Source: Bacteroidaceae bacterium (GTDB lineage: Bacteria > Bacteroidota > Bacteroidia > Bacteroidales > Bacteroidaceae). Taken from it: a stretch of 64,000 nt of DNA. The notes beneath the pieces were generated by a model. That model did not search any database. It was not told where the DNA came from and saw only the letters and a list, made by a program, of their open reading frames with translations. The stretch covers positions 55,329 to 119,328 of the forward strand of contig JAFTYI010000035.1 of NCBI GenBank assembly GCA_017464815.1, given 5' to 3'. Shown piece after piece: positions 40,992 through 46,495 of this stretch. Made by a program: the position numbers and the translations under genes. Numbering within the stretch: position 1 is the first letter of the stretch; every line of letters begins with the position of its first letter.

Positions 40992-41640
40992 TAAATTTAT
41001 TTATAACACCCTCCATCTTTATAAGAACGGTTCGAAACGCCCGGAAGATTTAAATCTTCAGCGCTCAACATCCGTATCTTCAAGCCTCATCGACCGTATG
41101 TTGAACAACCATCGCCATTGCCAACAGCCATCGCCTAAAAACCACCTCCCTACACCCTACACCATAATCCCTAAACCTTCATTCACAGCTTTCGCCTTCA
41201 CACTATATTCGTTGCCCCCTCATACTATATAGTATCAGCCCGAACCGAGTATACTCCGTTGGCGAACCATGTTTGCTTGGTTAGCGAACCGAGTTAACTC
41301 CTTTAACTCCTTAGCGAAGCGATTAACTCCTCTAACTCCTTCAATAAAAAACCACCCTTCACAGCCTTCACACCCTCGTAACCCACTGACATCCACCCGC
41401 TTTCTGTGAAGGCAAGTCCCTTCACCTTCCTTCACAGCCTTCACAGCCTTTCACAACCATTCCGTTTTGTCATCTTTTCCGAAATTTATGGAAGATTCTC
41501 TAAATTAGCTTGTGAGAATTTGCTTCGGATTTTTGAAGATTTTCCTTTTTGTCTACGAAGATTCATTTCATTCTTCACTCTTCCTTTGGGGGTGGCATTT
41601 TGTGTTTTACAACATATTCTGTGAAAATATTTATAATTTA
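40992..41640. repeat. Gene-free stretch composed of dispersed and low-complexity repeats
   Basis: No credible gene is present. The segment holds a CCCTACACCATAATCCC patch (41151-41178), overlapping GAGTTAACTCC/AACTCCTTTAACTCCTTAGC repeats (41245-41340) and clustered CTTCACAGCCTTCACA repeats (41355-41455). These are typical intergenic repeat types in Bacteroidales and mark the left edge of the accessory island. Confidence 0.6.
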
Positions 41641-41665
41641 TAGTCGATAATTCATAATTATTCCT

Positions 41666-41673
41666 TACCTTTG
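41666..41673 (+). promoter_or_regulatory. -7 box in front of the predicted abiF-like RNA
   Basis: TACCTTTG about 200 bases before the Abi gene. No clear -33 TTTG. The predicted start near 41680 would produce a leader or separate RNA containing the structures listed in the next entry. Confidence 0.5.
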
Positions 41674-41679
41674 TTTCGT

Positions 41680-41849
41680 CTCTTGCACCGAAGTCTCAAT
41701 AGGAGAGGATAAGAGAATGTGGATTAGGAAAGAGACAAATATGCTAAGGTATAAAAAACATTAACCCCGAAGTGTACCTTACGGCAGGGACAACGGGGTG
41801 TTACGCTGCAAAGGTAGAAACAATTATTGAATCTTGCAAGAATTGCAAG
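41680..41849 (+). ncRNA. Predicted structured RNA upstream of the Abi_2 gene (abiF-like)
   Basis: Visible elements are: helix GTCTC/GAGAC (41693-41697 with 41732-41736); helix ACCCCG/CGGGGT (41764-41769 with 41794-41799) containing an inner CCT/AGG hairpin; and TACCTT (41775-41780) inside that hairpin, which can pair exactly with AAGGTA at 41811-41816, or with a second AAGGTA at 41746-41751, giving alternative pseudoknots. A perfect 7-bp hairpin CTTGCAA-GAA-TTGCAAG (41833-41849) ends 25 bases before the start codon. A structured RNA is known upstream of many Abi_2/AbiF genes (abiF RNA motif); membership here is inferred from position and fold. The exact ends are unknown. Confidence 0.5.
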
Positions 41850-41874
41850 TAAAAATTAGAAGAATTAAAAGAAA

Positions 41875-42543
41875 ATGGACTTCAAGACAAGTCAGAAACT
41901 GTATTCGGTGGCACGAATGAACAAATATGCCAAAGCCTGTGCTTACAATAAACGTAGAACGATGCAATTGTATCGCTACAATCTAAGGTCATGCCAACGT
42001 TTTTATGGTATATTGCATTTATTTGAAGTCATGTTGAGAAATGCTATCAACGAACACTACACCTCATATTTCTCTGACTCTGATTGGATTACTAATCAGG
42101 CAAACAATGACGGATTGCTTACTTACAACAAGGATGAGATAAAGCAGACAGAAGCCGTATATAGAAAACGAGAAATCTATAGTAATGATAAGATGGTTGC
42201 TTCATTGACAATGGGATTTTGGACAAAACTTTTTTCAAAAAGCAGATATAGGGAAGGAGGTAAAACCCTTTTACGTATCTTCCCCAATAAGTCAAAAGGC
42301 AAAAATCAGTCGGACATCTATAAAGATCTTACTCACATTCGTGAATTTCGTAATCGTATCGCTCATCATGAGCCGATATGTTTTGACGCTACTGGTAATA
42401 TTGACACTACATTTGCACGCAAACATTACCAACTGATATGTGACTACATCAGTTATATGGGCTTTCAGCCTGAAAATGTGCTTAATTGGGCAGAAAAACC
42501 AGATGGCATATTGGATAGAATAGACAAGTTGGTGGAATATTGA
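41875..42543 (+). CDS. Abi_2/AbiF-family HEPN protein (abortive-infection type)
   Basis: The 222-residue protein has the family N-terminus KYAKACAYNKRRTMQLYRYN followed by QRFYGILHLFEVMLRNAINE, and a C-terminal HEPN RNase motif RNRIAH (RxxxxH, R159 to H164) in HIREFRNRIAHHEPI. HEPN proteins of this type cut RNA, and Abi_2 proteins protect against phage by abortive infection. A structured RNA directly upstream suggests a type of toxin-antitoxin in which RNA restrains the HEPN toxin. Base composition is AT-rich relative to the core genes. It stands alone between repeats and a gene remnant. Confidence 0.85.
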   Translation: MDFKTSQKLYSVARMNKYAKACAYNKRRTMQLYRYNLRSCQRFYGILHLFEVMLRNAINEHYTSYFSDSDWITNQANNDGLLTYNKDEIKQTEAVYRKREIYSNDKMVASLTMGFWTKLFSKSRYREGGKTLLRIFPNKSKGKNQSDIYKDLTHIREFRNRIAHHEPICFDATGNIDTTFARKHYQLICDYISYMGFQPENVLNWAEKPDGILDRIDKLVEY

Positions 42544-44666: not shown

Positions 44667-45365
44667 CTAACATTCAATGAGTTTCTGAATCCACTCATCA
44701 AAGTGCTTGCATTGGGTACGAAGCTCGTCAATACCTACATTCATGGTGACGTATTTCCCTGTAGCAGGTTTATTGTAGTTGTAACGTGGGGACTTACCAC
44801 CTTCAATGGCATTGATGATGCGTTTGCTGGGGGCTGTCTGTGGATGATTGTTGATGAGTTCGGGATTACCGACTTTCGACAAATCTTTTTTCAATTGCTC
44901 GCAACGACTTTCACATCCGGGATAACGCTTGATGATGTGCTCTATTCCACAGAACAGGAGTGCTTCAAACTCGTGTAATTGAATGTAAGGGAGGAAGCGT
45001 TCTTCATTGATGGCATCTGCAAAAGCTGCTTCTAATGCATCTACACGCACATACGGGTCTGCTATTGCTTTCGCTGCATCGTATCCGGGAAAATCATCGG
45101 GTAATGCGTAGAGGTCAAACATGGTGGTAAAGATATGCCGTGCATACTCTCCATCCTTCTGTGTCTTCAGCAGAATGTTCAGGTCTGTCAATGCATGGTT
45201 GTATGTCAGCATACCGCCACGTGCATTCTTCTTTTTGTTTGTTGTAATCAGAATCCCCTTTACGCCTGCCACACCTTTGGCTTGAAGGTATGGTTTCAAG
45301 ACTTCTGCCACAAACCCTTGTTCTGTCTGTCCCTCACAAAGGACATGAATAATCTTTGCTTTCAT
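44667..45365 (-). CDS. DUF4276 (TOPRIM-like) protein
   Basis: The 232-residue protein starts MKAKIIHVLCEGQTEQGFVA; E11 in CEGQTE matches the (V/C)EGxTE acid of OLD-type TOPRIM nucleases. A second motif, IQLHEFEALLFCG, is the DUF4276 signature. The gene overlaps the AAA ATPase by four bases, making a two-gene unit like the ATPase-TOPRIM pairs of OLD/PARIS-type defence. The nuclease assignment is from family relations, not proven here. Confidence 0.8.
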   Translation of the reverse strand: MKAKIIHVLCEGQTEQGFVAEVLKPYLQAKGVAGVKGILITTNKKKNARGGMLTYNHALTDLNILLKTQKDGEYARHIFTTMFDLYALPDDFPGYDAAKAIADPYVRVDALEAAFADAINEERFLPYIQLHEFEALLFCGIEHIIKRYPGCESRCEQLKKDLSKVGNPELINNHPQTAPSKRIINAIEGGKSPRYNYNKPATGKYVTMNVGIDELRTQCKHFDEWIQKLIEC

Positions 45366-46495
45366 ACGGGACGCCCTCCTATGATGTTTTTATCCCAAAG
45401 TTCGCTGATGGTGTATTTTTCAAGCCAAAGTTGATACTCCGCTTCGTCCAAATGGGTGACAGAAGTAGAGAGAGAGTCTTTGTCCATCTCAATGACAGAA
45501 ACATTGCCTACATCAAAATGGTCAACCAAATCTTTGCTCTGTGTGGCTATGATAATCTGCGAGTGGATTGAGGCGTCCTTTATCATCTCTGCCAACTGGG
45601 TAATGGCATAAGGATGCAAACCGAGTTCCGGCTCATCAAGAATGATGACGTTGGGCATTGTTTGAGCCGGTTGTAAAAGCAGTGTGGCCAATGCTATGAA
45701 CCTAATGGAACCATCAGAAAACTGATAGGCATTGAAACGATAGTCTGTTGCAGAATTGTCCATCCAACGCAAAGAAATGTAATTGTTGACAGGTTCAAGG
45801 TAGAAATCCACAAACTGAGGAACGACGTCACGCACATAATCAACAATCCTATCGTATGAGCTTCTGTAATTCTCACGTAAGAAGAACAAGAATGAAGGCA
45901 GATTATTTCCGTGAGACTGAAAATAGTTGGCCGTTTCTACAGGACAAGACTGACGCAAGGGTCCCTCCACTGATGAATCATGAAACTGATAGACCTTACA
46001 ATGCGACAACATGCTGTATATTGATTTAACCACAATGTCGTTGCTTTCCATAAGAGCAGATTCTTTAAAATTGGGCTCTAACACAATTTCATAAGGACGT
46101 TCCTCGCCTGTGCGATGCCAAACCACACGTTCTTCGGTGATAATCAGTCTGTCAGGTGCAGCATTGGCCAAAGAAAAACTGTAGGTATCTATGGATGAAT
46201 CGTTTGCAAACTGTAGTTCGCCTGACATCATCGGAGTCTTCTTTGCTCCATAATGCAACAAGGCATTCGATGTTCCAGACAGTTCCACATACTTACCAAA
46301 AGACTTGCTCATCATATAGCTCAACATTCGAAAGAAACTGATGATGTTACTCTTGCCTGCACCATTAGCTCCTAACAGGATGCTGACATCACCCAATTTC
46401 AATGTGACAGGTTTGTCAAAGGCTACAGACTTATAGCCTTTTATTTTCACCTCTTTCAACTTTGTCTTCCGATATTTCTTTGCCATTGTCATCAA
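45362..46495 (-). CDS. AAA (ABC-type) ATPase partner of DUF4276
   Basis: The 377-residue protein has Walker A LLGANGAGKSNIISFFRML (~35-53), an ABC-like region YQFSDGSIRFIALATLLLQP, Walker B NVIILDEPELGLHPYA and the switch IIIATQSKDLVDHF. This is the AAA_21/RecF-SMC-like ATPase found with TOPRIM nucleases. The start is uncertain by a few codons (MMTMAKK). It has its own -7 box and is oriented opposite to the genes on both sides, as expected of an inserted module. Confidence 0.87.
   Translation of the reverse strand: MMTMAKKYRKTKLKEVKIKGYKSVAFDKPVTLKLGDVSILLGANGAGKSNIISFFRMLSYMMSKSFGKYVELSGTSNALLHYGAKKTPMMSGELQFANDSSIDTYSFSLANAAPDRLIITEERVVWHRTGEERPYEIVLEPNFKESALMESNDIVVKSIYSMLSHCKVYQFHDSSVEGPLRQSCPVETANYFQSHGNNLPSFLFFLRENYRSSYDRIVDYVRDVVPQFVDFYLEPVNNYISLRWMDNSATDYRFNAYQFSDGSIRFIALATLLLQPAQTMPNVIILDEPELGLHPYAITQLAEMIKDASIHSQIIIATQSKDLVDHFDVGNVSVIEMDKDSLSTSVTHLDEAEYQLWLEKYTISELWDKNIIGGRPV

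What the first reader, a model, noticed from the sequence alone, without database searches (positions are those of the whole stretch)
41640..42543. Abi_2/AbiF HEPN protein with a structured upstream RNA: candidate RNA-controlled toxin-antitoxin
The 222-residue protein keeps the HEPN RxxxxH motif (RNRIAH, R159-H164). The ~200 bases before it have their own -7 box and a set of helices: GTCTC/GAGAC, ACCCCG/CGGGGT, a TACCTT that can pair with either of two AAGGTA copies (41746 or 41811), and a perfect CTTGCAA/TTGCAAG hairpin. The two alternative pseudoknots suggest a switch. Structured RNAs upstream of Abi_2/AbiF genes are known, and AbiF-type HEPN proteins have been proposed as relatives of Cas13. 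Whether this compact form works the same way is inference.
Basis: partly seen in the sequence, partly recalled or inferred. Interest (0 to 1): 0.8.

Follow-up and report, generated by a model that had tools for sequence, protein, structure and literature searches.

The report
Toxin gene with opposite-strand antidote RNA
A gut-type bacterium carries a small RNA-cutting defence gene beside a tiny, conserved RNA gene on the opposite DNA strand that most likely keeps the enzyme switched off, and some viruses appear to carry the same RNA without the enzyme.

Summary
The letters reported are there, but the conserved RNA is on the other strand. Only ACCCCG/CGGGGT is kept (18 of 18 close loci); GTCTC/GAGAC, the TACCTT switch and the CTTGCAA hairpin are in the window copy alone (1 of 18). 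The conserved unit, about 41748-41840, reads as a ~52-nt RNA gene on the MINUS strand, head to head with the Abi_2 gene: Bacteroidota -7 box, TTG 19-20 nt before it (41 of 50; null mean 3.9), covarying hairpin with an invariant YCNCU bulge, T-run. Rfam's abiF RNA model (RF03085) does not match it. A model built only from upstream-opposite copies also finds the RNA downstream of the gene on either strand and once upstream on the same strand; 78 of 99 genes have it within 400 bases. That argues against a leader, attenuator or obligate antisense mechanism; an RNA acting on the protein, as in AbiF type III systems, fits best. In addition, 36 of 65 pattern-selected viral loci and 10 of 20 copies in an order-level survey have the RNA with no detectable toxin gene beside it. 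RNA production, binding and neutralisation are inferred, not shown.

The parts
41875..42543 (+). abi_2/abiF-like gene, 222 aa HEPN protein, RNRIAH motif (R159, H164), predicted RNase toxin
   Evidence: ORF; PF07751 24.4 bits, E 4.2e-5, cut-off 25.6; PADLOC PD-T4-5 E 1.5e-11; R159 N160 R161 H164 E166 C169 invariant in 56 proteins
41748..41816 (-). conserved RNA gene unit: -7 box, hairpin, T-run
   Evidence: model R1, 77.1 bits; this copy (as L001) is one of the 50 rows that built R1
41752..41804 (-). predicted transcript of about 52 nt (candidate antitoxin RNA); ends inferred from promoter and T-run, not mapped
   Evidence: folds at -17.2 kcal/mol, z -2.64
41809..41816 (-). Bacteroidota -7 box TACCTTTG of the RNA gene
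   Evidence: sequence; TAnnTTTG consensus from a passage of PMC7366714
41837..41839 (-). -33 element TTG, 20 nt from the -7 box
   Evidence: TTG at spacing 19-21 in 41 of 50 RNAs (10 at 19, 31 at 20), null mean 3.9, max 11
41794..41799 (-). 5' arm of the closing stem (ACCCCG on the RNA)
   Evidence: 18 of 18 close loci
41764..41769 (-). 3' arm of the closing stem (CGGGGU on the RNA)
   Evidence: 18 of 18 close loci
41786..41790 (-). invariant YCNCU motif (UCCCU on the RNA), mostly a bulge; candidate protein-binding site (inference)
   Evidence: 50 of 50 rows of A1
41753..41758 (-). T-run after the hairpin (terminator of the RNA gene)
   Evidence: sequence; alignment A1
41666..41673 (+). plus-strand TACCTTTG; possible promoter of the toxin mRNA, which would read through the RNA gene in antisense; position not conserved
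   Evidence: sequence; a plus-strand TAnnTTTG somewhere 125-330 bases before the start codon in 10 of 18 close loci (no shuffle control made for this count)

Best explanation
A compact Abi_2/AbiF-type toxin-antitoxin pair. The gene makes a HEPN endoribonuclease. A separate gene on the opposite strand, with its own Bacteroidota-type promoter and intrinsic terminator, makes a roughly 52-nt hairpin RNA. The RNA most likely binds the protein through the stem and the invariant YCNCU bulge and holds the nuclease inactive, as AbiFr and RCd22 do for known AbiF proteins. If phage infection lowers RNA synthesis or stability, the protein would be freed, cut RNA and stop growth. Shown here: the conserved, covarying RNA gene on the minus strand; its association with the toxin gene in several positions and orientations; distant homology of the protein to AbiF. 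Inferred: that the RNA is made, binds and neutralises, and that phages trigger release.
For: Covariation: 88.1% of cells paired (shuffles 78.9), 60 cells changed on both sides (shuffles 19.9, 0 of 500 as high; slid controls 0-13), score 0.324 (0.146); RNAalifold adds columns 28-47, UA 44 and CG 6. Strand: -7 box, TTG spacing in 41 of 50, T-run on the minus side only, G-U 28 cells against A-C 4. Position: of 99 genes, 66 upstream-opposite, 7 downstream-same, 4 downstream-opposite, 1 upstream-same, 21 none within 400 bases; 49 of the 78 are rows of the model, 29 are not, and the latter include all 12 that are not upstream-opposite. The protein tree needs three changes of layout. In the own genome three strong RNA copies each lie beside an abi_2 paralogue. 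Protein: PF07751 in 53 of 56; PbAbiF 8vz6 at E 0.011; PbAbiF-type ORFs in L132 and L133 at 1.7e-5 and 1.4e-5 in a small set. RCd22 neutralises AbiFCd in trans by direct binding (PMC12373285: abstract, passages, sections 6, 7, 11, 12 and part 1 of 13 seen).
Against: No expression data, no biochemistry. RF03085 does not match. Two of the five measures do not exceed shuffles: pairs with a change on both sides 7 (mean 5.5, 63 of 500 as high) and further pair types 18 (mean 18.8, 407 of 500). Fold energy hardly tells the strands apart (minus -17.2, z -2.64; plus -15.6, z -2.00). The RNA set was picked by a script that asked for a -7 box, a hairpin with G-U allowed on the RNA strand and T-rich sequence, so these features and the G-U count are partly selected. 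21 of 99 genes have no R1 match at E<=0.01 within 400 bases; 10 of them have weaker matches (E 0.03-0.8) in their locus, 11 none in that call. Two of the four genes with only a downstream same-strand copy carry an in-frame stop (L002, L118). The RNA also occurs without the toxin.
Confidence: 0.75

Rival explanations
1. Type I-like antisense control: the minus-strand RNA pairs with the leader of the toxin mRNA and blocks its translation or stability.
For: If the toxin mRNA starts near 41666-41673 it carries the full complement of the RNA. In 14 of 61 upstream-opposite loci a plus-strand TAnnTTTG lies within 60 nt left of the RNA (null 1.6, max 5).
Against: In 11 of 44 upstream-opposite loci a plus-strand TAnnTTTG lies between RNA and gene (null 1.0, max 6), so such an mRNA would not overlap. 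Same-strand copies (upstream or downstream) have no antisense relation. The hairpin covaries and its bulge is invariant, which plain duplex formation would not require. It may be a second layer in some clades.
Confidence: 0.12
2. Plus-strand leader switch with alternative pseudoknots.
For: The plus strand folds with z -2.98 over 230 nt.
Against: Its distinguishing elements are in 1 of 18 close loci; sequence left of about 41743 is not conserved; no T-run follows the hairpin on the plus strand; eight genes with upstream sequence in view have the RNA only downstream (L002, L059, L061, L118, L022, L025, L026, L028).
Confidence: 0.03
3. Only an intrinsic terminator plus a divergent promoter, with no RNA function of its own.
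For: Hairpin plus T-run is terminator-like and sits between transcription units.
Against: A terminator needs neither an invariant YCNCU bulge (50 of 50) nor a promoter at a set distance before it, nor repeated association with one protein family in several layouts, nor copies in viral contigs that keep both bulge and complementary arm (the bulge was in the search patterns, the 5' arm was not).
Confidence: 0.06
4. The RNA is a guide or activator of the HEPN nuclease (Cas13-like) rather than its inhibitor.
For: Cas13 is thought to descend from AbiF (passages of PMC12165695 and PMC12737573).
Against: No variable spacer-like part: the RNA is almost wholly a conserved hairpin.
Confidence: 0.04

Closest known systems
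AbiF/AbiFr type III toxin-antitoxin: C. difficile AbiFCd-RCd22 (PMC12373285) and PbAbiF (PDB 8vz6; the Cell 2025 paper of Zilberzwige-Tal et al. was not seen, only what PMC12373285, PMC12737573 and PMC12804078 say of it)
   Same: Abi_2 HEPN protein with R-x4-H; a short hairpin RNA beside the gene; RF03085 RNAs of the same order carry GCCUCU in 9 of 11 listed matches, an instance of YCNCU
   Different: 222 aa against 300 aa for 8vz6; RNA not recognised by RF03085; RNA mostly on the opposite strand with its own promoter, whereas RF03085 lies upstream on the same strand as a PbAbiF-type gene in 7 of 7 places where both were found on one contig (6 over the Rfam cut-off)
ToxIN type III toxin-antitoxin
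   Same: RNase toxin inhibited by an RNA
   Different: Different toxin fold and a repeat-array antitoxin (both recalled); here one copy, two in L061 and L038
PD-T4-5 (PADLOC)
   Same: Window protein matches the model, E 1.5e-11
   Different: No RNA partner is named in that listing; the original description was not looked up
Pseudo-ToxI of phage PhiTE (PMC3475682; title and start of abstract seen in the listing)
   Same: A phage with an antitoxin-like RNA and no toxin
   Different: There found in escape mutants against ToxIN; here in public viral contigs, for an Abi_2-type system, and untested

Membership tests
AbiF (Abi_2) HEPN toxins | PF07751 at the curated cut-off | tested here: not met
   Window protein 24.4 bits against 25.6; 53 of 56 relatives match at E<=1e-3, best 3.5e-10
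AbiF (Abi_2) HEPN toxins | R-x4-H HEPN active site | tested here: met
   R159, N160, R161, H164 invariant in 56 proteins
AbiF (Abi_2) HEPN toxins | Profile homology to the solved PbAbiF | tested here: met
   8vz6_A at E 0.011, weak alone; PbAbiF-type ORFs in L132 and L133 at 1.7e-5 and 1.4e-5 in a small set; fold comparison not possible
abiF RNA (Rfam RF03085) | Match to the RF03085 covariance model | tested here: not met
   No match in the window (gathering; permissive), in 20 loci at gathering threshold, or in L030 and L061 in permissive mode
abiF RNA (Rfam RF03085) | Shared core motif | tested here: inconclusive
   YCNCU in 50 of 50 A1 rows, GCCTCT in 9 of 11 RF03085 matches, not in L137 and L138; R1 scores only 8.9-22.4 bits at the RF03085 place in the 9 loci tested; too short to prove descent
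AbiF type III toxin-antitoxin | RNA upstream on the same strand, co-transcribed with the toxin (as in RCd22) | tested here: not met
   Opposite strand in the window; 66 of 99 genes upstream-opposite, 1 of 99 upstream-same at E<=0.01
AbiF type III toxin-antitoxin | RNA binds the protein and neutralises its toxicity | not testable with these tools
   Needs co-expression and co-purification
Type I toxin-antitoxin | RNA antisense to the toxin mRNA throughout the family | tested here: not met
   Same-strand layouts, and 11 of 44 upstream-opposite loci with a toxin-side TAnnTTTG after the RNA gene
ToxIN-type type III | Tandem repeat antitoxin array | tested here: not met
   One R1 match in the window; two copies in L061 and L038
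Leader riboswitch or attenuator | Conserved element in the 5' leader on the coding strand | tested here: not met
   RNA strand is opposite and position moves

The most novel reading that the evidence does not exclude
The RNA is a free-standing inhibitor module that phages and other genomes carry without the toxin, as an RNA decoy that disarms Abi_2/AbiF-type HEPN defence: a natural, widespread class of RNA anti-defence elements. Support: of 65 viral loci selected by two RNA patterns, 36 match the model R1 at E<=0.01 and 36 keep the complementary 5' arm that the patterns did not ask for (34 are in both sets; scrambled-arm control 1 of 65), with all four letters at the free stem position matched and 17 distinct sequences. 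No relative of the toxin was found in the 65 loci and none by PF07751 in 8 whole records, mostly fragments. L187 keeps two RNAs of an L038-like cassette back to back with the toxin gene absent. In 10 of 24 scanned viral loci a tRNA-Met gene lies on the same strand within about 165 bases before the RNA.
Probability: 0.4. Interest if true: 0.85.

Novelty: new variant of a known kind. Interest (0 to 1): 0.68.

Why it matters
It adds a compact form to the AbiF toxin-antitoxin family from which Cas13 is thought to descend, with an RNA that no Rfam 15 model matched here and that is encoded on the opposite strand and moves around its toxin. That separates what the RNA does to the protein from what it does in the leader, which a co-transcribed RNA such as RCd22 leaves mixed. 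The toxin-less copies in viral contigs make RNA-based counter-defence against this family directly testable. Whether the Cell 2025 AbiF study already covers this RNA could not be checked: it made its own diverse RNA models, named in passages of PMC12804078.

Tried and rejected
Rfam scans gave tRNAs and chance-level matches. The plus-strand switch was rejected. A PDB search with the single sequence found nothing. A Y-RNA/Ro60 reading of viral RNAs near a 546-565 aa gene: that protein (L166) had no Pfam, PHROG or PDB match, so it is neither supported nor excluded. The L084-type RNA as an exact pattern was found in 0 viral contigs. The window RNA as a blastn query found no record in the phage collection. 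The tRNA-containing query matched only by its tRNA part in the 20 rows shown, so it says nothing on the RNA. Phage PTm1: the 34.5-bit hairpin was reached through a blastn hit of E 0.009; by my own scaling, such a score is near chance for the whole phage collection, so it is suggestive only. I guessed, without a tool, that about 40 chance matches to the first pattern could occur in the viral collection; for this reason only loci with model or stem support are counted. Of the 36 model-supported loci, L162, L171, L185, L186 and L188 share one sequence without a clear T-run at 28 bits and are the weakest. Of 6 viral contigs with a toxin relative only L124 has the RNA; L125-L129 gave no R1 match. 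Literature searches for this RNA or for toxin-less AbiF RNAs: (121 and 83 for phage mimics and promoters); I saw no report of either in the rows listed, which cover openly licensed papers only.

Full report
WHAT IS THERE. The window lies in a 2.6-Mb draft genome in 58 contigs. The nearest relatives of the gene in genome contigs are Prevotella and other Bacteroidales assemblies. The gene 41875-42543 encodes 222 aa with RNRIAH. Pfam Abi_2 matches just under its cut-off, and 53 of 56 aligned relatives match it at E<=1e-3. R159, N160, R161, H164, E166 and C169 are among the invariant residues. The family profile finds PbAbiF (8vz6) at E 0.011 and PbAbiF-type ORFs at about 1e-5 in a small set.

THE RNA IS ON THE OTHER STRAND. 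Upstream sequences of 18 loci (the window copy and 17 relatives at 67-78% protein identity) align only from about 41743 to the gene; further left they are unrelated. Read on the minus strand the block is a complete small gene: TACCTTTG at 41816-41809 (the Bacteroidota -7 consensus is TAnnTTTG, passage of PMC7366714), TTG 20 nt before it, a GC-rich hairpin, and TTTTTT at 41758-41753. GTCTC/GAGAC, TACCTT in the loop and the CTTGCAA hairpin are in 1 of 18 close loci, ACCCCG/CGGGGT in 18 of 18.

COVARIATION. A script looked for -7 box, hairpin and T-rich tail in 66 upstream regions and reported 54; L060, L070, L067 and L004 were dropped and 50 aligned by sequence. On the hairpin, read off the same alignment, 88.1% of cells pair (shuffles 78.9), 60 cells are changed on both sides (shuffles 19.9, 0 of 500 as high), and sliding the partner gives 0-13; but the number of pairs with such a change (7 against 5.5) and of pair types (18 against 18.8) is no higher than in shuffles. 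RNAalifold adds pair 28-47, UA 44 and CG 6. G-U cells outnumber A-C 28 to 4, as expected of the minus strand, though the script allowed G-U on that strand. Fold energies barely separate the strands. The TTG spacing was not selected for: 41 of 50 at 19-21 nt, null mean 3.9. The motif YCNCU is in 50 of 50, and in 39 of the 42 further matches within the positions the script looked at (L089 and L090 carry it earlier; the short match in L124 does not).

POSITION VARIES. Model R1 was built only from upstream-opposite copies. Over 100 loci and 99 genes it places the RNA within 400 bases of 78: 66 upstream-opposite, 7 downstream-same, 4 downstream-opposite, 1 upstream-same (L104, 28.8 bits). 49 of the 78 are rows of the model; 29 are not, among them all 12 outside the upstream-opposite class. 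21 genes have none at E<=0.01; 10 of these loci have weaker matches (E 0.03-0.8), largely of two diverged RNA types. Eight genes have only a downstream copy with upstream sequence in view (L002, L059, L061, L118; L022, L025, L026, L028); L038 has one on each side and was counted as downstream; L063 and L064 are cut by the contig end, so their upstream side is unseen. L002 and L118 have an in-frame stop. The protein tree needs three changes of layout (quick method; some labels there, such as L107, L004, L105, L106 and L112, rest on weak R1 scores). In the own genome strong RNA copies lie beside three of four paralogues and the fourth, L004, has a weak one (21.3 bits). An RNA that stays with its protein but not in one place or strand is best read as a product of its own.

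TOXIN PROMOTER. A plus-strand TAnnTTTG lies between RNA and gene in 11 of 44 upstream-opposite loci (null 1.0, max 6) and within 60 nt left of the RNA in 14 of 61 (null 1.6, max 5). So overlap of the toxin mRNA with the RNA is likely in some clades and not in others; antisense pairing can be at most a second layer.

RELATION TO KNOWN AbiF RNAs. RF03085 matched none of the stretches scanned. In 247 genomes of the window's order (unnamed by the tool; I take it as Bacteroidales) RF03085 is in 11, 8 over the cut-off. In 7 places it lies on the same strand just upstream of a PbAbiF-type gene (6 over the cut-off). Nine of the 11 matches carry GCCTCT; L137 and L138 do not. R1 scores them 8.9-22.4 bits. 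G164, G263 and G266 hold both protein types. I read the two RNAs as distant sisters with the same architecture; this is not proven.

TOXIN-LESS COPIES. In a draw of 393 genomes of the order, R1 gave 20 matches in 15 genomes and the protein profile matched 23 genomes (same size of draw and same handles). Ten of the 20 RNA matches have no toxin relative in the fetched locus of up to 3 kb, and their 8 genomes are not among the 23; five of the ten score only 36-47 bits, and drafts may be incomplete. L084 lies beside a tail tape measure gene. In IMG/VR, two patterns gave 37 and 28 loci. R1 matches 36 of the 65 at E<=0.01; 29 of 37 and 7 of 28 have the complementary 5' arm (scrambled control 0 and 1). 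No toxin relative was found in them by tblastn or by a profile search whose best viral E was 0.82 while positive controls were found; 0 of 8 whole records match PF07751. L187 matches the L038 cassette at 94.9% over 195 nt and 93.7% over 63 nt, with no gene between the two RNAs. One viral contig, L124, has toxin plus RNA. Phage PTm1 has a 34.5-bit hairpin between two ORFs, suggestive only. These copies could be decoys, remnants, or partners of something else.

HOW IT MOST LIKELY WORKS. Synthesis of a short RNA from its own promoter keeps the HEPN RNase in an inactive complex; loss of RNA supply frees it. RCd22 neutralises AbiFCd in trans by direct binding (PMC12373285), and bulge nucleotides of AbiFr are said to inhibit PbAbiF (passages of PMC12737573). 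For this family these steps are inference.

Counts were recounted; the share of model rows, the contig-cut loci, the shuffle measures that do not support the structure and the five low-scoring orphan copies were added, the shared-motif row was lowered to inconclusive, and confidence went from 0.76 to 0.75.

Noticed in passing
window 44667-46495 (-): A HEC-01-type pair (HEC-01B with DUF4276, E 3.4e-74; HEC-01A ATPase, E 1.4e-126) starts about 2.1 kb after the abi_2 gene, so this may be a defence island.
   Followed up: no
L187 10911-11112: Viral contig with two different subtypes of the RNA back to back and no toxin; same cassette as L038 minus the gene.
   Followed up: partly
L165, L166, L169, L172, L182, L183, L184, L191, L194, L196, L197 and others: A group of viral contigs with near-identical hairpins (CCCCG..CGGGG or CCCTG..CAGGG); in some a tRNA-Met gene lies shortly before it; in L166 and L191 a 546-565 aa gene follows about 600 bases later, the L166 one without Pfam, PHROG or PDB match.
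   Followed up: partly
L226 2496-2554 (phage PTm1, AP019524.1): Family-like hairpin with T-rich tail at the junction of ORF-254 and ORF-255 (partly inside both as annotated) in a complete Tenacibaculum phage genome without Abi_2 match.
   Followed up: partly
L002 (own genome C6): Paralogue with an in-frame TGA and a downstream same-strand RNA; may be a decaying copy.
   Followed up: no
L048 1398-1463, L102, L103, L160; L104-L109, L111, L112, L120, L122, L004: Two further RNA types beside more distant Abi_2 relatives (AAAGCCTCT.. and CAGTCCCGGTAATTCCTCTCCCAG..-like), with CCTCT.
   Followed up: partly
L047, L048 (also L033, L124 in part): Back-to-back promoters share letters: in TATATTTGCAAA the TTTG ends a plus-strand -7 box and CAAA is a minus-strand TTTG at -33 spacing (sequences).
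   Followed up: no
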